A stretch of DNA of 64,000 nucleotides from Dissophora ornata. Its lineage: Eukaryota; Mortierellomycota; Mortierellomycetes; Mortierellales; Mortierellaceae. The translations under genes and the position numbers were made by a program. Below the pieces are notes generated by a model. It saw only the letters and a program-made list of their open reading frames with translations, was not told the origin of the DNA and ran no database searches. Shown here in pieces: positions 1,081 through 36,730 of this stretch (its first letter is position 1; each line of letters opens with the position of its first letter). Location of the stretch: the NCBI GenBank assembly GCA_025201705.1, contig MU616631.1, positions 1-64,000 on the forward strand, written 5' to 3'.

Positions 1081-4000
1081 ATGCCCCTTTCTCCTTTAAG
1101 GCTGTCGCCAATAAGGAGTTTCCGCTCCTCTGGTTTGCTCTCACTCCTTCTCATCCTATTCAGCTGGGCCACCGTCCAGACTGCAGAAGCATGGCCCTAT
1201 GTCGACTGCTCGAGCTCGAACCCTATCTTTGCGCTCGAGAGGGTCACTGCTTACTATAACCGCACCAACAATTCGATCGGCTTGTTGCTCAACGGCAACT
1301 TCACAGACGCGTACTGGGCTCAGGGGTATTCGGCAGCAGCCACTAGTCAATGTAGGTTTAGCAAGCACACTTCTTCAGCTGATTTGTTTCTGAACAGAGG
1401 GAGTGGCCACACCCCTCTGAAAATCCAATGGCGCACTGCGAAGAGGGAAATATTGGAGAACAAAGGGCGGCGCCCATGTCCAAAAGTTCAGTGTTGTTTT
1501 GGGATTGGATCGATAATTTTTTTTTGTTGAAAAATGTGCGTATGTAATTATTTATAGAATCGCGTAGAATTATTTGTGCCTGGAGTTTGACTTTGCAGAA
1601 ATAGCCAACAGCACAAGACGCTGGCAATGGCAGCGGTAGCATGAAAAAAAAAAAAAAACGTCGCCGTTTGGCGACTAAGAGAGTCGAATCGATCGACAGC
1701 AAAGAAAAAAAAAGGCGGCGCGTGATATCTCTGTGCGACGGTGACCCCTCGTGCCATGCCTTTCCCTCTTTTATTTTATTCGCTCGTCAAGCAAAAAAGG
1801 AATGGAATGCCACACACGGCTATTCTTTTCATTCATTTTGACGCCATTTCCAATTATCCGTGCAAAATGCACTGCATGCAGGCACGGCGAATTCAATTCC
1901 AACTGAAACCCCTTGAAAAATTCCACACGATCCATCGCCCTTGGATGTTATTATTAAGGATCCATAAAAAAACAACACCTAACAAACCCAGTGATGCGTT
2001 CATGAATTTCTTTCTAGGGCGGACATCAATCCAAACAACCATCATGGGAGCTCAACTCTACAGGAGCGAGGGACCAGCCTGCATGGCGGACGGAGGCATG
2101 ATCGTAGGAGGTTGCCCTACCGCCCCTGGCGTAGGGACTATTCAAACCGTAATGTTACCCCCCTACCCTGAACATTTAGTGCGCTGCAAGGTACAGTGGC
2201 AGTATGTCCAGCTAACACGGGTTCACCGTTGTACTGCATACATAGAGCTTCAACATCTCGCAGTCTGCTCCATTTGCAGAGTTGATGGTAACCATGCAGA
2301 TCATCGGCAGTAACAACCAGTCGATTGTCTGCGTGGCTGTCCTGCTCGAGCAGACCATGCCGCAGGTCAGCACTGCTATCAGCTATTTACCGATGGCGCT
2401 CGCCTTTTTCTCAGGAGGAATCAGTCTTGCAGCAACAATGATGAGAGCATCAGTCGGGAACGGTTTCTTGGGCGCAGTGGCGAGTTATGGCTTACCAACA
2501 GAGGCCATTGCTGTCCACACCCCTGGGTTCTTTGACATTATCTTTTATACCCAGTTCATGCTGATGACAGGACAGCTCTCGATCGACTATCCTTCTTATT
2601 ATTCGACATTTACCGCCCTCTTTCATTGGTCGTTCCTGGAGTTCGCAAACACATTGGTAGGGAAGGGGCCAGCGAACGCGACGGACGTGCTGATGTATGG
2701 TGGAGCTGGGTCTGTGAACCAGATCAAAGCTACATTCAGTAATAGCAGTTGGAGCAACAGCAGTCAGAGTTGGGGCTACAGCAGTGATATCGAGGTTGAA
2801 AGTGGGCATTTCCTGCAAGGAGAGACGTACAAGCAGCTGCTGGACGCTGGACTTATACCAGCCACCGGAACAGCTGGAGCTACGGCAGTTCTGAGATATG
2901 CGGGCATGGCGCCATCAGTCCCCACGTCAACATTACATTTGGAGAAGCGACAGGCAGTGTCCACTCACTCTAGCGATACCACTTCGTCAACCACAACCGC
3001 ATCGCCATCATCATCATCAACATCGTCGACGTCATCGTCATCGACGTCCTCTTCGTCCAGTTCTTCGAGTTCTTCCTCGTCTTCATCGTCTTTCAGCTCT
3101 TCAGACTCACCTTCACCACCGCCTACAAGTCGCTCCAAGACGACTTCAGGTGTCAAGCCTACATCATCCTCCGCCGCCACACGTACAACGGTTAACCCTA
3201 CAACTGCATCAACAACTGCGACGCTTGTTATCCCTACCATCACGGATCCCTTCACAAATACAAGCGTAGGTTCTGTACAACACAATATGTCAAGGTTCGG
3301 TGTTGAGGCCTATGCGGCAGCTATCGGTGCATTTCCCTCAGCACTGTTCCTGGGAACCCTGATCAACGCAAGCCTGGCAGCGGGGGCATCTTTGGTCCTA
3401 TCGGCCGCGTTGCTCGGCGTTGCTTGGATCATGGCAAAGGAGAACCACCAGAGAGGCAAAACCCTCTATCATGCCATAAATTTTGTCGCCGGTAAGCATA
3501 AAATGGGGATTTTTTTTTTTTTTTTGGCAAGGCTGTTTTTCTGACATGCAGTAATGCAATCACCGTTTTACATGGATGTTTACGCTAAAACTAAATTTTT
3601 GTCTGCATTGTTGGGTTGATTAGGCAATTTGCTTCGTGTGTGGACACTGCTCTATACCCCACTGGCTCTCTCGGCCATGTACCAGCTTACGATATCCGGC
3701 AGCATCGGCCTCACTATCGCTGCTGCAGTATCTTTACTCATCATCTCTGTAGGCGCCACCATCTTCTTCACCTGGCGAGTCCTTCGCGCCTCCTCCGAGC
3801 TCTTGCTCTACGACGATCAGGCTACTCTGCTTAAATACGGTACCCTCTACAACACCTTGGCTCCGGAGGGCACACTCTTCTTCCTCGTGACACTTCTTGT
3901 TCGTTTTCTTTGGGGACTCGCCATCTCCATGTTGTCGTCCTTTGGAATCGCACAAGTAGCAGTGTTGATGGTAGTCGAGTTTGGATATGTGCTCGTCTTG

Positions 4001-7000
4001 GGCGTGAAATGGCCCTACGCAGAGTCTGGTGACAACAAGTTCCATCTATTCCTCGGGATCATTCGGGTCGTCATCACTGGGTGCTCAATCGCATACATTC
4101 AGAGCTTGGAGGCGTCGCCGGATTTGAGGCAGCTGTTTGCGTATATCCAAATGGCATTGCATCTGGCGGTCTTCATCGTGATCTTTGCCCTGGTGTTGTG
4201 GAACTTTATTCAGGTCTGTATGTTCTGGAGGATGAGACATTCGGATGCTTGGAGGGGTCCAACAAAGACCTACAATTTCGAGGATCCTGTTGATGAAGTC
4301 GAACAGGGTTGGGGGCTTGCGAGAAGACCGCATCCGAGAGGCCCTGGAGGACATACCAGAGGGGTTGTGGTCAACCGCCATGGAGAGGAAGTGGAGGCGG
4401 ACGAGTTTGATCCATCCAAGAATCGGAGCTTTACAGTCATGTCGTACTCTTCACTCGGAAGCAGTGCTCCGGTTGGTGGCAATGGGGCAAGGAGGGAGAC
4501 GATGCAACACGTTTTGCATGGGCCTTCACCCACGCTTCTTTTGCAACAGTATGACAGCTCGGATGAGGATACGCTGAGGTTCGGGTCCCCCGCGGAGAGG
4601 TATCGACAGTCAAGGCTGTCAGACAACCATCGGTCCCAGCTTGGGCAGTTGGTTTCTGACGGTGACTCTTTGGCGGATGAGGCCTTGGTGGACAGGCGGC
4701 ACGAGAGTCTAATGCCTATCGCAGGACCGACTATCGGAGCCTTGACCGTTGCAGCTGTTGTCGGTTCAGGATCGAGTTCTTCACTCCCGCATTCACAGAG
4801 TGCACCGTCCAGCGATGCGGGCGAATCGACCAAGATTGATCCTCGGCAGTCGTTGATAAGGGGAAATCTACCTCAGAGAGAGTCGTATGCTAACCTCCAG
4901 AGAATGTCTCATCAGGGTGCACCGGACCCACGGACGAGGAGAATGTCGGACATCATGCGTGATGGACCATATCTTTTCGCCGCTAGAAAAGAGGAGCAGG
5001 ACAATGCCAGTGCAAAAGCTAGTGCAAAAGGTAGTGAAAAATCTAGTGCAGCTATAATGTCCAGTGAACCCAAGCAGAGCCTTTTGACAGGACTGAAGGC
5101 ATCCCTTGGCAACGCATTCCGATTCGGCAAACTATCTTCCAACGCGCCTTCCGGCGATGGCTCGAAACCCAAGGCATTTGAAGTCATGCGGCCCTCACGC
5201 CCGAACTATGCTCCTGAACCATCGTCCTCAGCATTTGTGGACGAGACAGGATCTCAGGCAGGAGGGGATCAACTTCGAGAACTCAATTCACTCGGCATTT
5301 CAAGGTTCTTCCAAGAGTCCGATCGCGGATACGAGAGGAACCGGAGCCTGTTTGTGGCGAATCCTTCGGCTATGATCTCGAGAACAGGAAGTCTAATGTC
5401 AACAATCTCGGGGGCAGTACCGCATAATACGAATACGGCAGCATCTGCGAGGTTGAACAGGGCTGGTTCAGGAACTGCCGAGTCGATCAGGACCCTGAAC
5501 CAGGCGAAGTCTAGAGGTGCTGGCGTTGGGTCAAGTTTAGGCCCTGCAGGAGGAGGAGGAGTAGGAGTAGGAGGCCTAAGCGTCGCTGGGGACAGAAGTT
5601 CAATGGCTGCTAGCGTGGTTGGTGGAATTGACCCTTCAATTTCGGAGCATGGCGGCACCGCCTCCATATCGGATAAGGATTCGCGTCGCACGTCATCAGC
5701 TATTGTGGGCGGTGCTGCAAGTGGAGCCGGCAGTCAATTGTACCCTCCACGACACTCTGCGGAGAGTTCTAACAACATAGCAGAGGCGCTTGCTACTGAG
5801 AAGACACTGGTGCTGGAGGGAGGAGCTATCCTGCGAGTTTCGAAGGGACCCGAGAAGGCAGTCCAGTATTGGCATAATAAGACTGGTCAGTACGTAGAGT
5901 CGATTGCAGAGTCCTTGAAGGACGAGAAGGCAGAGGATCAGCGGGAGAAAACTAGAGATCCAAGAGAAGGAACAACAGCTGCAACGGTCTTAACGACGTC
6001 GCCCTTGCTCTTGCCTTCTCTTAAGACTCAGCAGCAACAGAAGCAACCCCGACAACAACAAGAGCAGCATGCGGAACAACAGCGACAGCCATCTTCGCCT
6101 TCAAATAAGAGTCGATCCATGGCCGAGAGCAGCACGAGTGCGGGATTGAGTAGTGCTCCCGAGAGTCCTACAGAGAGTCAGGAGAGTCCTACAGCAGCCA
6201 ATGTTGCCGCCAGGATGCATGAGATTGTAGGCCGCATGTTTCCGGATCGATCGGTGGTTCTGCATAGCGACCATGAACATGACTCTGACTCTATCCTAAG
6301 CGAGGATACGGCGTCAACGTTTTCGGGACGGATGTCTATTGGTCAACGATCGATCCTCCAGCAGACACAGCCATCTCAGCCAACAGTGGTGCAACCGGGT
6401 GCAGGATTACAGCTCGGTGATGCCGACGAGAAGCATCACCGCCAGGACGAAGATGCTCAATCGACTGGGCCTTACGATATGCTGGTGCCGGTACATGGGG
6501 GCTCGGACGTAGAATCAGAACAGGATCCTGACGTGACGCCTCGGCAGTCAGATTTTGGGGCATCTTCGCCCAATTCTGACGCCGGTAATAGCAGGGTGTT
6601 CGTGCAGGGAGAGACGCACACTCAAAAAGAAGTGCCACATGGGCTTGGGTCAGATCATGTTAAGAGATCCTCGTCCTCTGCAAATGAGAAGAGTCAGCCA
6701 GGCACGCCATTGATGCGGACATTTTCTGGACCGTCGAAATTGACATCGGCTGGAGTATCAGGAGGTTCTCTTCGACCGGGGTTGCTAAAGTCCAAGCAGA
6801 ACTCGGTTTCGAGTCGTCCGCTGGCGCAATCGCCCCTTCACTCGCCCTCTGTTCAACTCGGATCAGGGTCGGTATCAGGATCTAGCATGGGTGGCCTGGC
6901 CGATTTGAGTCGTCAGTCGTCCGTCCAGTCTGCGGCCGGCTCAAAGTTGGAATACTTGGAGTGGTTAGACCATCCTCACAACAACGGCGATATGGATGAG

Positions 7001-7120
7001 ACAAACACCAACTTTTTGAACCGTAATGCATCGGTTGGTACGGTGCGCACAGAGGCATCATATGTGACAGCGAGGTCACAATACCCTTCTTCCGATGACG
7101 AGGATCAAGAAGGACTGTAA
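1081..7120 (+). CDS. TRP/ML-like domain membrane channel (FLC/Pkd2-type) with very long disordered C-tail
   Basis: Predicted exons are 1081-1351, 2018-2190, 2264-3491 and 3624-7120, giving 1722 aa in one frame. The first ATG at 1081 starts a hydrophobic signal peptide ending near the Ala residues before WPYVDC. An extracellular N-terminal part with several N-glycosylation sequons follows, then a Ser/Thr-rich mucin-like stretch (about residues 385-470). A block of about nine hydrophobic helices lies at about residues 490-740. It carries the typical TRP-family features: GNLLRVWTLLYTPLALS, then a helix ending in WPY before the last pair of helices. This matches the fungal TRP/flavin-carrier (FLC/Pkd2) family, multi-pass proteins of the plasma membrane, ER or vacuole involved in calcium and cell-wall homeostasis. 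The last ~960 residues are low-complexity, Ser/Gln-rich and probably cytosolic, far longer than in yeast FLC proteins. The gene is convergent with KRI1. Family assignment is strong; transported substrate is unknown. Confidence 0.85.
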
Positions 7121-29851: not shown

Positions 29852-32800
29852 ATGTCAGAATCACCCATTCAACTCCCCACCTCCGCACAGGAACTCGCCG
29901 AGATCTCCTCGCGTGTCGAGGACCTTTTGCGCGTCAGTGGAGACGACCTGGTCGCGGTCCCTGTTGCTGAGCGTACTATCGAGAACACATTGTTGAGACT
30001 GCAGGAGGCCCAGAGCCAGGCTGCTGCCATGCAGACCCAGTGCACTTTTCCAGCCATGGTAGCGGCCCAATCCCCCCTCCCCCCCACCCAACATGTTGAG
30101 TTGCGCAATCCAATTGAAAAAAAAAGATGTGCCCCTTGACCAATTGCGCGCTATCTCTCTTTCTTTTTTTTTTTTTACACTTGCGTAACAGGTGCATCTG
30201 AATAAGGAGGTCCGCGATGCTGCGACCGATGCGAAAAAGTCACTACAGAAGGCTTGGTCTGCGTATGTCATGTCTTCATTTGGCTGCGTTTTTTGAAGAG
30301 AACAAGTTATCCGAATTAGGATGCAATTGGGGAGAATATAATAATAACCAGCCATGTGTCTTTTGTCCCATTTTTGCTTCCATAGTCTTTTTTCCAGGAG
30401 AGTAAGTTGGCGTTTATTGTGGCCAATCAAAAGGGAGCCGTCGTTTGTGAGCCCTTAAACTGACCAAGCACACATAACATTGCTAAAAAAAAAAAACTCG
30501 TGCTAGGACGTGTACGCAATCTTGAGTGAGCTGGATCAGGGGTCACACACGGAAAGCGACTCGCAGATCCAACGCCTACTCAAACACACTCTCCGCCTCT
30601 TTCAACGCCATGGTGCCGCGCTCTCTGAGACGGATCAACAAAAGCTTTCAAAGATCCGCACAGAGATCGGTGGCCTCGAACTTGATTTCCAAAAGAACTT
30701 GAATGAGGACACGACAGACATCCTGCTGACAGAAGCCGAACTCGAGGGCTGCACCGAGTCCTGGATCTCTGGACTCCACAAGACTGAGAAAGACGGCAAG
30801 CAGGTTTACAAAGTCACAATGAAGACGCCCGATATCTTGAACGTGAGCAGGAATGCGATTCTGCCAGAGACCCGAAAGAAGGTCACAGTGACGTACCGTC
30901 AAGTCTGTACCTCGACAAACGGGCCTATTGTGGAGCGACTGATCCAGTTGCGACACGAGGCTGCAGTGTTGTTGGGGTACAAGAGCCATGCGGCTTATCA
31001 GCTGGACATCAACATGGCCAAAACAGTTGACAATGTGGACGAGTTTTTGGATACGATCACGAGCTCCATCTCGGGAAAGCTGGAGAGTGACAAGGAGACA
31101 TTGTTAGAGTTGAAGCGCATTGAGTACGATAACCGTGGATGGAGCAGTCAGCTTGATGGCAAACTTTATTCTTGGGACGTGAAATACTACCAGGAAATCT
31201 TGTTCAAGGAGAAATACGCGGTTGACAACTCATTGATTCAAGAGTACTTTGAACTCGAATACGTTCGAGACCAGATCATGGGCGTGTAAGTTTTTCATAT
31301 AAGCCAAATCTGTTATAGTATGGTTTTTTAGGGTTTTCGTTCGCGGATGATGTCAAGTTTTTAACACTCAGCTATTTTTCGGTTCGACGATCCTCTAAAA
31401 AGCTACTCTGAGATCTTCCAGCTGAGGTTCGAGCAAATTCCTGGAAAGTACTGGGCAGAAGATGTGACCTTGTTCGCAGTCTACGACCAAAAGGCGCAGA
31501 ACGAGGCTGGTGAAGCTGGCAAAAAAGATCCTTCCGCGTTCAAGATTGGATACTTTTATCTTGGTAAACTGCAATAACCTATTTTGATCCGCGCATAGAA
31601 GTGAATTTGATCATAGAAGGGATCAGAAATGATACTGACACCTTGTATTTTTTGCTGCATGGTTACAGATCTCTTCCCTCGGCCAGGTAATGACTAGCAG
31701 ACAAACGGTCTAAAAGATGGTTGTCATTGAAAATGCTCCTAGCCTTAACATAGAGTCGCTGTATGTCTAGGCAAATACGCTCACCAGTGCGTCGTGCCGT
31801 TGCGCCCAAGCTACACTGTTTCTAGCACTGGGGAGCGCATGCTGCCAGTCGGTAAGGATTGTGCATGCAGTTGTTGCGATTACTTCAATAGAAAATATCC
31901 TACTAAAAAGCATTATGATTTTGCGTCGTCAATAGCGGTCAATGTCGGCAATCTCTCGCGCCCCACAGCTGACCGACCTGCGCTGCTCAAGCACAGCGAG
32001 GTTAGATTTCTACAACTTTTTGGAGAACGACCTCAAAGTAGATGGATGGGGTCGAAAAATAAGCAATGCAATAACTAACGTGGAGCCTTTTTTATTTTTA
32101 TTTTTTTTCCCTCCATGCAAATATCTATAGGCCAACACGTTCTTCCACGAATTTGGTCATGTATGCCACGCAATGTCTAGCAAGGCTCGCTACTCGCTGT
32201 TCAACTTTTCGTGGTCCGCTGTTCCATACCCAACGTCGTTGGCCATGGACTTTTTGGAAGTCCCTAGTATCATGCTCGAGAACTGGCTCTGGGAACCCAC
32301 GGTGCTCAAGCGCCTTGGCAGGTATGAGTCGGATTGTTAGCATGTTGGGCGATATGGTATACAGTTTTGCTTTGTTCTGACACTCCTTACACTCTCTCCG
32401 CCTCTATCACCGAATATCCAAAAGACACTACAAAACTGGGGAAGAACTTCCGGATGACTTGATCGAGTCTCTCGTCAAGACCCGCAAGGTCCTCAAGGGC
32501 CTCCTGTTTTCTCAGCAGATCGCTGTTACTGCCATTGACATGAAGCTCCACAGTATCGACCCAAAGCAGCGCACAAAGTCGATCCCTGAATTATGGAAGG
32601 AAATGAGCGAACAAATTGTCGGTGTCAAACTCGAGGATGAACCAGACACCAACCCTGCTTGTCAGCTGTACCACATCGCGATGGGCTACGACGCCGGTTA
32701 CTACGTCTACGCCTGGTCAGAGATGCATGCCCATGACCTCTATACCCGCTTCAAGGACAACGCGGGCAGAGATTCACAAGAAAGAACAAGGGCGATGGAT

Positions 32801-32935
32801 GGAAGCTTGGGACGAGAGTATTGGGAAAAAGTGTTGGTCCCGGGTGCGACTGTCGAACCAATTGAGTTGCTGAGAGACTTTTTGGGAAGGGAACCGAATG
32901 CGCAGGCCTTCCAGCGCTACCTGACGGAAGCATAG
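29852..32935 (+). CDS. M3-family zinc metallopeptidase (thimet oligopeptidase / saccharolysin-like)
   Basis: Ten exons (29852-30058, 30192-30262, 30386-30401, 30507-31285, 31403-31563, 31669-31686, 31771-31851, 31936-32000, 32131-32321, 32425-32935) give 699 aa, the usual size of the family. The zinc motif HEFGH is at residues 472-476 and the third ligand Glu at 509 in FLEVPSIMLENW. The stretch between them is about eight residues longer than I recall for mammalian thimet oligopeptidase. The substrate-loop region (MGYDAGYYVYAWSE) is conserved. These enzymes cleave short cytosolic or mitochondrial-intermembrane peptides. No clear targeting peptide is visible, so cytosolic action is inferred. 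Exon 3 (16 nt, encoding ALFSRR across its borders) is my best choice by family spacing; a 4-nt alternative (30398-30401) also keeps frame. Exon 6 is only 18 nt. Confidence 0.9.
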
Positions 32936-33098: not shown

Positions 33099-36000
33099 TC
33101 ATACGTAGTCTGGAGTCTCGTTCTTCTCGGAGGTTGTATCAGTCAATAGTAGCGTTGACGCGCTCCTATTCCTGTCTCTGATCCCTTGTGCGGCTTCAGC
33201 AGCACTTCCAGCTTCCTTCATCTCAACGTCCCCAGAGTCAGTAGTGACTTCATGCTGCTGCTGCTGTTTCGACTGGTTCGTCTCTAAAATTTGCAGTTCC
33301 TGTCCGATTTGGTGGTATGGCACTGACTGGCGACGAGAATATGGTCTGCTATTAAAGTAATCTTCTATATGGGCAATGTCCCTGTGGCGCTGGCATCGGC
33401 AGCTTGATACTCCTTGGCATTCCTGTGTTGCTGATGCAGCAGATTCCTGATCTGACGACGACGATGGAGTAAAAGCCAAGGACCGCATCAACGGAGGCAA
33501 ATCCTGCAGGGTGTTAACAACAGAGTAGTGGCGATCATAAATTCCACCAAAGCTATTGAAACTCGGTTCAAAAGGTGACGGCGGATAGGAGGTATAAGGG
33601 GTCGAGTTGACAGGTGTATTTGCGCCACTGAAGATCGTCAGCAACGCCTCTGCAGCAGCAACTTCCGCGACGGACTCTAATGACGCCGACATGGTCCTTG
33701 AATGGGTTGACGGGAACATAGGACTGTAGTTGCTGTAAGGTGAATTGGCTTGAGATTCAGAGTCAGAAATCTCTTGAGCCGCCTTGAGCAGATCCATGAT
33801 ATCGTCTTTTCGTTTCCTGCCGTGCCTGCCGTGATGTTGCCAGTCTTCCTCGTTCCCCGAAGAAGGCTCCCTGCTGCGCTCGTTTGTACTGTCTGCTCGC
33901 TGCGATCCATATACATGAGGCCCTTGCCATGGACTTTGCTCAACAGAATTAACCGCGGAGAATACAGATGACGACGACGAGTGCGTAGGCGAGGGAATGG
34001 GAGTTGGTATGCAGGATGGACAGAAATACTGTTTCGAATCCTCGCCAAGTTCTTCGTAGTCACGATCTTGGAGACCCTTGTCGCAAGCGACATGCACCCA
34101 GAGCGAGCATCCATCGCAAAAGATCATCGGTGTCTCGTAATCGTCGTCCTCATAGGTCCGACAGCAGAGGGGACAGATATTTCCCTTCTCGGCCAGAGTC
34201 GTGCACGAAGGGCACAGCGCACAGCCATTCGACCAACGGCCCTCGCCAATACCAGATTCTTTGGATTCAGATACGGTAGTAAAGTCCTCGTCTACCATGT
34301 CGACATCGGTTGCTACTGCTGCACGGCATCCGCATTCCACGCATTCTCTGCAGTCAAGACATATCCACTCCATCAAACTGCGAGATGCGCTTGATCGGAT
34401 GATGTCCTTAAGAGTTGGTTCTCGTACGAGCTGGCATTGAAGGTGGACGGACTGGTGGCATTTGTCACAGGATATTATTTGAATATCCTCTGATGTAGCT
34501 GCCTGCGCTGCCAGTCCCGACATCGCACCCTTGCTTGAATGAAGTGATGGTACCTCGTGGACTGACTTTCGGCAACAGCTGCAGATGGTACATCGTGGAC
34601 ATTGCCGTGAATTCCCAGCCTGCAAAGACGCCTGCTTGCCGGTAGTGGTATCGGGGGGTATACAGTCAAGATGGTAGTAATCGCCACAGTCAAGACAACG
34701 CTTCATTGCACCCTGGCTATAGCGGACATTGTTCGCCGATGACTCTTTGCCGTCCGCATAGGATCTGTGGCTAGAAGATTCCAGGGTTGAGCGGCGGCGG
34801 CGGGGTGTGATCACTTCTCCCGTGGTACCACACAGGACACAGAGGGTTTCATCGTTCTTGCTTAGCGACAAACCTAAAGGAGCCATAGCTGGCGCCAACG
34901 ACAGGGCCTTCACAGCCCTCAGTGCCGACACGCGGGTCCTAGATGAATGTGACCATAGCAACTCTTGCTCCTGTCGGTGTCGTGCCAGACTTTCCAGCGG
35001 TACGGGGTGTTTGTGTCGATGCGACCTTTGTCGTGACCCTTGATTCCTTGTTCCATGACGAGTATAGGTTCCCAAGGTCGGCGATGAAAAGGGATCCTGC
35101 ATCGCAAAGAGTGCGCCGGCTGCCTCCAGGTGCAGCTGTCGATCCTGCATGATGTCTGAGCTGACCATTCCGGATAGATCTGACATGGTTCTCTTCCTTG
35201 GCCGAGTTATCCCTGATCTGCCCTTTTGCACAGCCGTGCCAGTCTGAGTTGTGATCCTTAGCTCTGTCTTCTCTGCAGCAGCGATCACAGGGCGCTTGCG
35301 CTTTTTTCTGTCCATGACGGCTGAACCTATAAGTTCCGCAGAAAAAAAACTTTCAGTCACACAATACATAGCGAAATGGCGCGTGCTTGCAATATCTACA
35401 ATAACAATGGCTTCAAAATACCTTTGCCCGTGTGTGACGACCCTCCCTCTGCTTGTCCTGAGCCGTCCTCCGTCATGTCTGCCAAGTAGCGCTTCCTTAA
35501 GACGTCCAGCGACACTTCTGTCAACCCCTGACCTTCAAACATCTTGCTCAGCTCAGGGACCTGTAGGATCGGAATCTTAATGGCTGACCATCCATTGACG
35601 GCTACCTTGCCCGTTCTGCCGCCCTTGACCATTGCTGTAGCCCATGCACTGGGAGTCTCATATTCGCTCTGAAGCCATGGATAAAGTGTTATGGCATCTG
35701 CCTCCTTGAATTGCGGAATCAGCGTCCCCTTTGCAGTGACAACCGCGCAATGTTCACGGAAGATAGCCAGCGTGTCAGCAGGAAGGTATCCGGTCGAAAC
35801 GAGGTTGTACAAGTTGACGCGGAGCTGCGCTGCAGACTTTAGCGTGGACGGTTTGATGTCCGTCGGTTTACTCCCATTCGATACGGCTGACGTCGCTGTT
35901 GTTGATGGCTCAGGCTCTACTTTGGAGTTCCCCTTTGCGGGTTGTTTCGTCGATCCATGTCCTTGCTGTCTCCTTGTTGTCTCTGGATCCGAGAGTCTGC

Positions 36001-36730
36001 CTGATTGGTCATGACTCGAGTCCTCGTCCTGGCCATTATGCCTGCGTTCCTGAGCCAACAGCGCGTCTGCGGAGGCAATCGAGTAGGGTCGTGTCTTTTT
36101 CCTCTCACGAGGAACTGTAATCTTTGACAAGTCGCGTCCTGAGAAGGCAGAATGGGTCTGTGAGATGCTGAGGGCTGTCAGAGAGTTTGCAGTGGCAGTG
36201 ACGGGGCTTGCCAGAGGAGAGGGTATCGTGTGGTTAGTGACAGGAGACAGAGCGGCTAAGTGAGCGCCGTTCGAGTGCGACCTGCCATGTCCAGAGAGGC
36301 GTGGAGGAAGAGGAGGTCTCTGGTGGGTCTTCTTGTCCATGTCCGTACTGGTGCGATATGGACCATAGTGCCGCTTGAAGGTTGCGGTATCGTTGTTTTC
36401 ACTACTGTCAGCGGATCCTGCATCACCCCAGGTCATGTCTGCGCTTGACAATGAATCTGATGATTCAGTTGATCCTTGGGCGCAGCTCTCGTTCGATGAT
36501 GCATCAGTTGACGATGATTTCTTTTCTCTCACGTCCGAATCCATGCTAGGCCGTCCAGACGGTGTCTGCTGCTCGTCCATCACATCTGTTTGACTGTCCA
36601 GTAAAGTTCCGGAATCCGGCGCATGGGCCGAGAATGAGGTTCGGTCTCGAGATGAATTGCGATAGTGTTTTGGCATGGCGAATCCGTTGGCACCTTTGGC
36701 CTCGACTGCCTGCAATTCTTGAGCTTGCAT
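33099..36730 (-). CDS. RAMA-domain and PHD-finger-cluster chromatin protein
   Basis: Exon 1 (36730-35422) and exon 2 (35326-33099) join in phase across a 95-bp intron to 1178 aa. The start is the first in-frame ATG (MQAQELQAVEAKG). Residues about 300-390 form a RAMA domain (LRVNLYNLVSTGYLPADTL, then ETPSAWATAMVKGG and NGWSAIKI), named from its occurrence with restriction enzymes and adenine methylases and proposed to read modified DNA. Residues about 597-872 hold a Cys/His cluster of several PHD fingers (CVLCG, CLDCGDYYHLDC, CDKCHQSVHLQC, CPLCCRTYED, FCDGCSLWVHVAC, FCPSC), resembling the multi-PHD block of trithorax/KMT2-type proteins. The rest is Ser-rich disordered with nuclear-type basic clusters (KKRKRP, GRHGRKRK). 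A nuclear reader of DNA and histone marks is inferred. The two parts occupy different frames and could be mistaken for two genes. Confidence 0.85.

What the first reader, a model, noticed from the sequence alone, without database searches (positions are those of the whole stretch)
33099..36730. RAMA domain fused to a multi-PHD cluster: candidate reader of modified DNA and histones
The two halves lie in different frames and are easily annotated as separate genes, but the splice phase (exon ending GGGCAAAG, acceptor TTATAG) joins them exactly. RAMA is associated with adenine-methylation systems, and early-diverging fungi are known to have abundant 6-methyladenine at ApT sites. A protein combining RAMA with histone-reading PHD fingers would be a natural 6mA-to-chromatin link. 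I am not aware of a characterised protein with this pairing.
Basis: partly seen in the sequence, partly recalled or inferred. Interest (0 to 1): 0.78.

Follow-up and report, generated by a model that had tools for sequence, protein, structure and literature searches.

The report
RAMA–MLL reader of fungal chromatin
A Dissophora fungus has a two-exon gene predicted to encode one protein that joins a RAMA domain, which likely grips DNA and possibly adenine-methylated DNA, to three PHD fingers, the last of which keeps the four residues that human MLL1 uses to hold the H3K4me3 histone mark; it is a testable candidate for the adenine-methylation reader that a 2026 review says is still unknown in fungi.

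The parts
35422..36730 (-). Exon 1: ATG at 36730, residues 1-436 plus the first base of codon 437
   Evidence: six-frame match to P0016 at 61% identity
35327..35421 (-). Intron, 95 nt, GT-AG, phase 1 (predicted)
   Evidence: apparently unspliced homologs break off just after the same place while full-length ones run on into DRKKRKR
33099..35326 (-). Exon 2: rest of codon 437 to the stop after residue 1178
   Evidence: match to P0016 at 62% identity
35471..35833 (-). RAMA domain, residues 300-420; predicted DNA contacts T359, S361, W381
35292..35312 (-). Basic motif DRKKRKR, residues 442-448, nuclear-localisation-like (inferred)
34590..34841 (-). PHD1, residues 599-682
   Evidence: zinc-ligand columns invariant, one nearly so, in alignment A4 of 17 sequences; PHD stretches
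34350..34583 (-). PHD2, residues 685-762
   Evidence: zinc-ligand columns invariant in A4
34203..34343 (-). Four-cysteine spacer C765-C768 and C808-C811 between PHD2 and PHD3
   Evidence: columns invariant in A4
34011..34175 (-). PHD3, residues 821-875, MLL1-PHD3-like; predicted H3K4me3 cage Y828, Y833, M837, W846
   Evidence: MLL PHD3 entries are the only solved-structure sequence matches at E <= 0.001; best fold matches 3lqi, 2kyu, 3lqj; cage residues from PMC8022399; kept in 36 of 38 PHD3-like fingers
33624..33683 (-). Conserved linear motif SLESVAEVAAAEALLTIFSG, residues 985-1004, function unknown
   Evidence: 97% mean identity to 17 Mortierellaceae for residues 981-1000; 45% in Jimgerdemannia and 40% in Tieghemiomyces for that block
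32381..32935 (+). Neighbour, not part of the gene: last matched frame of a convergent M3 peptidase, ending 163 nt downstream, which leaves no room for an ePHD-FYR-SET half in place
   Evidence: Pfam Peptidase_M3 to profile position 454 of 457; an earlier piece of the same family match lies at 30507-31289

Best explanation
The gene is predicted to encode one two-exon protein with a RAMA domain followed by an MLL-type PHD1-2-3 cluster, and it likely works as a bivalent chromatin reader in which RAMA would hold promoter-proximal DNA (possibly 6mA-marked ApT) while PHD3 would hold H3K4me3 on the neighbouring nucleosome. Shown by sequence and model: the open join, the RAMA fold with the DNA-contact positions of MPND, the MLL1-like PHD3 with an intact cage, and no ePHD-FYR-SET half in this gene or found elsewhere in this genome. 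Shown in relatives: the same N-terminal half sits on a Trithorax/MLL-like backbone whose SET domain lacks the NH-motif Asn. Inferred: the SET domain stopped being an enzyme, and the Dissophora-Gamsiella lineage then dropped that half and kept the reading modules. The likely writers are separate: an MTA1-type adenine methyltransferase and a Set1-type H3K4 methyltransferase in the same genome. The protein would help hold 6mA and H3K4me3 together at active promoters, perhaps through partners bound by its conserved linear motifs. The 6mA preference is the weakest step.
For: Join; homolog P0038, uninterrupted at the junction, against its 83%-identical relative P0005, which runs into other letters there. 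RAMA: (the only solved match at E <= 1 is MPND, E 0.064); contacts. PHD3. Family backbone. Pseudo-SET. Loss here. Conservation peaks at RAMA and PHD3, among others. Writers present: MTA1-type; Set1. 6mA and H3K4me3 co-locate at promoters in AMT1-bearing eukaryotes (PMC12695648, passages) and in Rhizopus (PMC13297926, passages).
Against: No RNA, binding or methylation data for this species. MPND's RAMA bound DNA whether or not it was methylated, contacting the backbone only (PMC9963953). The same review that calls fungal 6mA readers an open question says the effects of 6mA appear to work through nucleosome positioning and blocked transcription-factor binding rather than dedicated readers, and the 18-species survey found that lowering H3K4me3 in Acanthamoeba left 6mA nearly unchanged and that co-occurrence may only reflect transcription. 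The RAMA scores of the window and of the full-length relatives scanned are below Pfam's curated cut-off. MLL1 position Q1587, which contacts the H3 peptide and matters by mutagenesis, is F839 here. The bromodomain that strengthens MLL1 PHD3 binding is not detected. The PHD-cluster model is weak (mean pLDDT 64), and MLL3 PHD6, solved with histone H4, follows MLL1 PHD3 closely in the fold search.
Confidence: 0.6

Rival explanations
1. RAMA here is a general DNA- and histone-binding module without interest in 6mA; the protein is an H3K4me3 reader with a non-specific DNA anchor. This overlaps with the best explanation, which leaves 6mA open.
For: In MPND, 6mA made no difference to binding, contacts were to the backbone only, and RAMA also bound histones (PMC9963953). 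The conserved positions in this family are those same backbone contacts.
Against: No Dikarya protein appeared among the named hits of three capped searches, which fits the 6mA-rich lineages, and an MTA1-type writer is in the same genome. An earlier pull-down study reported 6mA selectivity for MPND (cited in PMC9963953).
Confidence: 0.4
2. Two separate genes: a RAMA protein ending in the 'intron' and a PHD protein starting inside exon 2.
For: The frames differ, the exon-2 frame is open through the intron, and three Podila records of 396-414 aa (one marked partial) carry the RAMA segment without PHD fingers.
Against: 35 of 51 collected proteins carry both halves in one chain, though most are predicted gene models. 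Homologs share the same junction, and P0038 is uninterrupted there. The window's intron has GT-AG ends and joins in frame.
Confidence: 0.05
3. An active H3K4 methyltransferase of the Trithorax/MLL type, as some relatives and even SET-less ones are named ('Histone-lysine N-methyltransferase 2B').
For: Relatives carry SET, and some ePHD and FYRN, in Trithorax order, and the SET of P0013 matches human KMT2D/2C best.
Against: The window protein has no SET, ePHD or FYR match. Searches of the genome find no such half, while the same search finds the N half at 61-62% identity. In relatives the NH-motif Asn is missing in 21 of 21 readable SET copies; in MLL5 an Asn-to-Arg change in that motif led to loss of cofactor binding (PMC5094779, passage).
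Confidence: 0.03
4. A decaying remnant of an MLL-like gene without function, left after loss of its catalytic half.
For: The C half is missing in D. ornata and from the annotated Gamsiella, D. globulifera, Lobosporangium and Gryganskiella proteins. PHD1 and PHD2 are only moderately conserved, 19-60% per block.
Against: The frame is open over 1,178 codons. RAMA (69-97% per 20-residue block) and PHD3 (89-97%) are among the best conserved parts, against 11-28% over residues 1-120. The cage and contact residues are intact in the two Dissophora and the Gamsiella proteins.
Confidence: 0.05

Closest known systems
MPND (RAMA-MPN protein of animals, PDB 7YDT/7YDW)
   Different: MPND carries an MPN/JAB domain; this protein has PHD fingers instead
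CcrM RAMA domain (bacterial DNA adenine methyltransferase, PDB 6PBD)
   Different: There it is the C-terminal part of a methyltransferase; here no enzyme domain was detected
MLL1/KMT2A and Trithorax
   Same: PHD1-2-3 block; PHD3 matches MLL1 PHD3 (E 3e-11) and keeps the cage Tyr, Tyr, Met, Trp; full-length relatives share the domain order on to SET
   Different: RAMA present; no CXXC or bromodomain match; SET degenerate in relatives and absent here
MLL5/KMT2E
   Same: MLL-branch protein with a non-catalytic SET whose NH-motif Asn became Arg (PMC5094779, abstract start and one passage), as in 16 Mortierellaceae copies
   Different: One PHD finger and no RAMA (recalled); the window protein lacks SET altogether
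Ichthyosporean p1 subunit of the AMT1 complex, with a PHD domain
   Same: A single protein that may link 6mA machinery to H3K4me3 (PMC12695648, passages)
   Different: p1 is a partner of the writer; RAMA-PHD would be a reader

Membership tests
RAMA domain (PF18755) | Profile match | tested here: met
   14 of 14 segments at E <= 1, best 1.5e-9; the window's own 2.7e-5 is below the curated cut-off, 24.5 against 35.2 bits. Not listed for the whole window protein, P0013 or P0012
RAMA domain (PF18755) | Same fold as MPND and CcrM RAMA | tested here: met
RAMA domain (PF18755) | DNA-contact residues of MPND | tested here: met
   T359 (for Ser), S361, W381; motif present in 48 of 51 proteins; it is missing in P0037, P0043 and P0051, where no RAMA segment was found
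RAMA domain (PF18755) | Binding of 6mA DNA | not testable with these tools
   needs purified protein; disputed even for MPND
Trithorax/MLL (KMT2A/B) methyltransferases | PHD1-2-3 block with an MLL1-like PHD3 and its H3K4me3 cage | tested here: met
   binding itself not measured
Trithorax/MLL (KMT2A/B) methyltransferases | ePHD, FYRN and FYRC downstream | tested here: not met
   absent from the window protein and not found in the genome; in relatives ePHD and FYRN by Pfam in Dimargaritales (some below cut-off) and ePHD in Jimgerdemannia, by motif only in Mortierellaceae
Trithorax/MLL (KMT2A/B) methyltransferases | Catalytic SET with NH motif and post-SET cysteines | tested here: not met
   no SET here; NH-motif Asn 0 of 21 in relatives
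Trithorax/MLL (KMT2A/B) methyltransferases | CXXC domain or bromodomain | tested here: not met
   no Pfam match in the window protein or in ten RAMA-bearing relatives scanned; a bromodomain only in the RAMA-less P0051
MPND/MYSM1-type deubiquitinases | MPN/JAB domain | tested here: not met
   no Pfam match

The most novel reading that the evidence does not exclude
This is the missing 6mA reader of early-diverging fungi: a Trithorax/MLL-related protein that took a RAMA domain as its DNA-targeting part, lost its methyltransferase activity, and became a two-mark coincidence detector that binds only where 6mA-ApT linker DNA lies beside an H3K4me3 nucleosome, tying the two promoter marks together.
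Probability: 0.33. Interest if true: 0.87.

Novelty: new variant of a known kind. Interest (0 to 1): 0.69.

Why it matters
A 2026 review of fungal DNA methylation says that no canonical 6mA reader has been identified in fungi and calls the existence of such readers an open question (PMC13297926, passages); a 2025 survey of 18 unicellular eukaryotes says that identifying readers is key and finds 6mA sitting between H3K4me3 nucleosomes (PMC12695648, passages). A conserved protein with a DNA-modification-associated domain and an H3K4me3 pocket in one chain, found in three early-diverging phyla, turns that into a bench experiment. It also suggests that a Trithorax/MLL-type backbone existed in early fungi and lost its catalytic role there.

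Tried and rejected
A six-frame family search of the genome with PF18755 found nothing, not even this gene, so it cannot show that other RAMA proteins are absent; a search with the window's RAMA segment found only this copy at E <= 10. All three homolog searches scored only the candidates sharing most words, so absence of Dikarya or Mucorales among the hits is weak evidence. The locus C511 matched the PHD3 region of P0016 at 46% but its frames read as a different PHD protein. The PHD-cluster model is poor outside the fingers, so only PHD3 is used. Paper searches with 'RAMA domain' and 'PHD', 'RAMA', '6mA' and 'SET domain', 'early-diverging fungi', '6mA' and 'H3K4me3', 'RAMA domain', '6mA', 'reader' and 'Mortierella' (no paper), 'adenine methylase associated' and 'fungi' (no paper), and three broader ones (of which only 20 of 35, 20 of 54,977 and 10 of 114 papers were listed) showed no paper, among those listed, whose title, abstract start or passages seen describe a RAMA-PHD or RAMA-SET protein; I read passages only. 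The Iyer et al. 2016 BioEssays survey of eukaryotic adenine methylation (recalled) is not held and may list such fusions. In PMC9692433 on fungal SET proteins a text find gave no occurrence of 'rama', 'fyr' or 'mortierell'.

Full report
What is there. On the minus strand, exon 1 (36730-35422) and exon 2 (35326-33099) flank a 95-nt intron with GT-AG ends; joined, they give 1,178 residues and a single terminal stop. The product differs at 2 of 1,178 positions from BGZ58_001877 of Dissophora ornata, a member of Mortierellaceae, Mortierellomycota, so the window comes from that species or a very near relative (inference). A convergent M3 peptidase frame ends 163 nt beyond the stop, which bounds the 3' side.

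Is it one gene? No RNA was available. Three lines favour one gene. First, 35 of the 51 proteins collected carry both the RAMA motif and a PHD3-like finger in one chain; most are predicted gene models. Second, homologs share the junction: apparently unspliced ones (P0001, P0002, P0003, P0005, P0009) run into unrelated letters just past it, while full-length ones continue into DRKKRKR. Third, P0038 is uninterrupted at that place although its relative P0005, 83% identical over 414 residues, is not; both come from the source 'lgn', which I take to hold calls made without splicing (recalled, and inferred from P0005), so P0038 would be a transcript or an intron-less copy.

The PHD cluster. Residues 599-875 hold three PHD fingers and a four-cysteine spacer, with zinc ligands invariant or nearly so in 17 aligned sequences. 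Only MLL PHD3 entries match by sequence among solved structures at E <= 0.001 (3 distinct sequences, best E 3e-11), and MLL1 PHD3 bound to H3K4me2 or me3 leads the fold search, with MLL3 PHD6, solved with histone H4, at rank 6. The model of the whole cluster is weak (mean pLDDT 64). MLL1 holds trimethyl-lysine between Tyr1576, Tyr1581, Met1585 and Trp1594 (PMC8022399, passages). By the alignment these are Y828, Y833, M837 and W846. All four are kept in 36 of 38 PHD3-like fingers; the exceptions are the Coemansia protein P0050 and the RAMA-less P0051. One further peptide contact, Gln1587, is F839 here, and the bromodomain that tightens MLL1 binding was not detected. H3K4me3 reading is therefore likely but unmeasured.

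The family it belongs to. The full-length homolog search scored 7,990 candidates (a capped list) and returned 41 proteins. Many are 1,800-1,980 residues long and carry SET. Pfam gives RAMA, PHD, ePHD, FYRN and SET in Tieghemiomyces and Dispira (FYRN in Dispira and ePHD in Tieghemiomyces below their cut-offs) and RAMA, PHD, ePHD and SET in Jimgerdemannia. In Mortierellaceae Pfam finds SET, while ePHD and FYR are seen only by motif. The order is that of Trithorax/MLL proteins (recalled; P0051, shows it). Four organisms checked fall in Mortierellomycota, Mucoromycota (Endogonales) and Kickxellomycota. The SET domain of P0013 matches human KMT2D and KMT2C best but looks inactive. Of 23 SET rows, one was cut short (P0022) and one is the canonical RAMA-less P0051. 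In the remaining 21 the Asn of the NH motif is Arg in 16, Gly in 2 and Gln in 3; the chains end at or shortly after the SET domain without the post-SET cysteines that P0051 shows, though P0016 is a partial record. In MLL5 an Asn-to-Arg change in this motif led to loss of cofactor binding (PMC5094779, passage).

Loss of the C-terminal half. In this genome (31.4 Mb, 968 contigs) the full-length relative P0016 finds the N half at 61-62% identity; for the C half it finds only weak SET matches at 33-36%, and the C half of P0013 finds one at 38%. That SET frame (C390) belongs to a Set1-type protein, best match 'H3 lysine-4 specific'. These searches score only the best candidates and the assembly may be incomplete. 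On the tree, both Dissophora proteins and Gamsiella form a clade (96/93), and all three lack the half. Lobosporangium and Gryganskiella also lack it in annotation, M. claussenii keeps an FYR remnant, and the two Actinomortierella proteins keep an ePHD motif but no SET. The label needs 6 changes on the tree, at least 3 forced, but some 'missing' rows are partial or odd records (P0019, P0036, P0038, P0046). Only D. ornata was checked in DNA.

What is conserved. Per 20-residue block, mean identity to 17 Mortierellaceae is 69-97% across RAMA and 89-97% across the PHD3 finger, but 19-60% across PHD1-PHD2 and 11-28% over residues 1-120; other short motifs are also high (70-79% over 161-220, about 80% over 481-520, 80-97% over 941-1020). 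Conservation thus appears to hold the reading modules and some linear motifs.

The writers. The same genome has an MT-A70 gene on C401 with DPPW whose 56-aa fragment matches the 7F4R/7YI8 'MT-a70 family protein' (recalled as Tetrahymena MTA1) at 53.8 bits, against 21 for METTL3. A second, on C30, matches 7CV6 best. Whether this species has 6mA was not tested; Mortierellomycota is listed among the 6mA-dominated early-diverging fungi (PMC13297926).

Mechanism and doubt. The most likely reading is a bivalent promoter reader: RAMA on DNA, PHD3 on H3K4me3. Co-occurrence of 6mA and H3K4me3 just downstream of start sites (PMC12695648) would put both ligands within reach. The 6mA preference is not established: the MPND structure paper saw no effect of 6mA and cites an earlier pull-down that did. 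The review that calls readers an open question also says that 6mA effects appear to work without dedicated readers, and in Acanthamoeba lowering H3K4me3 barely changed 6mA. I give the bivalent reader 0.6 and true 6mA dependence about one in three.

Membership. It contains a RAMA domain and an MLL-type PHD1-3 block. It is not filed as a KMT2 methyltransferase, because SET, ePHD and FYR were tested and not met; nor as an MPND-type protein, because no MPN domain was found.

Noticed in passing
L019 (G000:C511, 15036-18311): A second multi-PHD protein with a PHD3-like finger (KGRFCPVC...NRWVHMDC); its finger is 46% identical to the PHD3 region of P0016. No RAMA was seen in the 3.3 kb read.
   Followed up: partly
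L015/L016 (G000:C401): MT-A70 gene of the MTA1 type with DPPW in one frame and LEIFGRKNNLRDYWVTVGNEL in another; likely 6mA writer of this fungus.
   Followed up: partly
L014 (G000:C30): Second MT-A70 gene (DPPWQN) closest to PDB 7CV6, named Methyltransferase-like protein 2 there; METTL4-like (recalled).
   Followed up: partly
window 33624-33683: Conserved linear motif SLESVAEVAAAEALLTIFSG after the PHD cluster, partly kept in Endogonales and Dimargaritales; perhaps a partner-binding helix.
   Followed up: no
window 36095-36238 (residues 165-212, exon 1): Two further conserved motifs in the N-terminal region, IPSPLASPVTATANSLTALSIS and GRDLSKITVPRERK, in blocks 70-79% identical among Mortierellaceae.
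   Followed up: no
protein P0040 (Actinomortierella ambigua): After the ePHD motif the annotated protein runs into a stretch that by eye resembles a transposase DNA-binding region, so a fused gene model or an insertion.
   Followed up: no
window 2246-7120: TRP-type ion channel matches in two neighbouring open frames, presumably exons of one gene.
   Followed up: no
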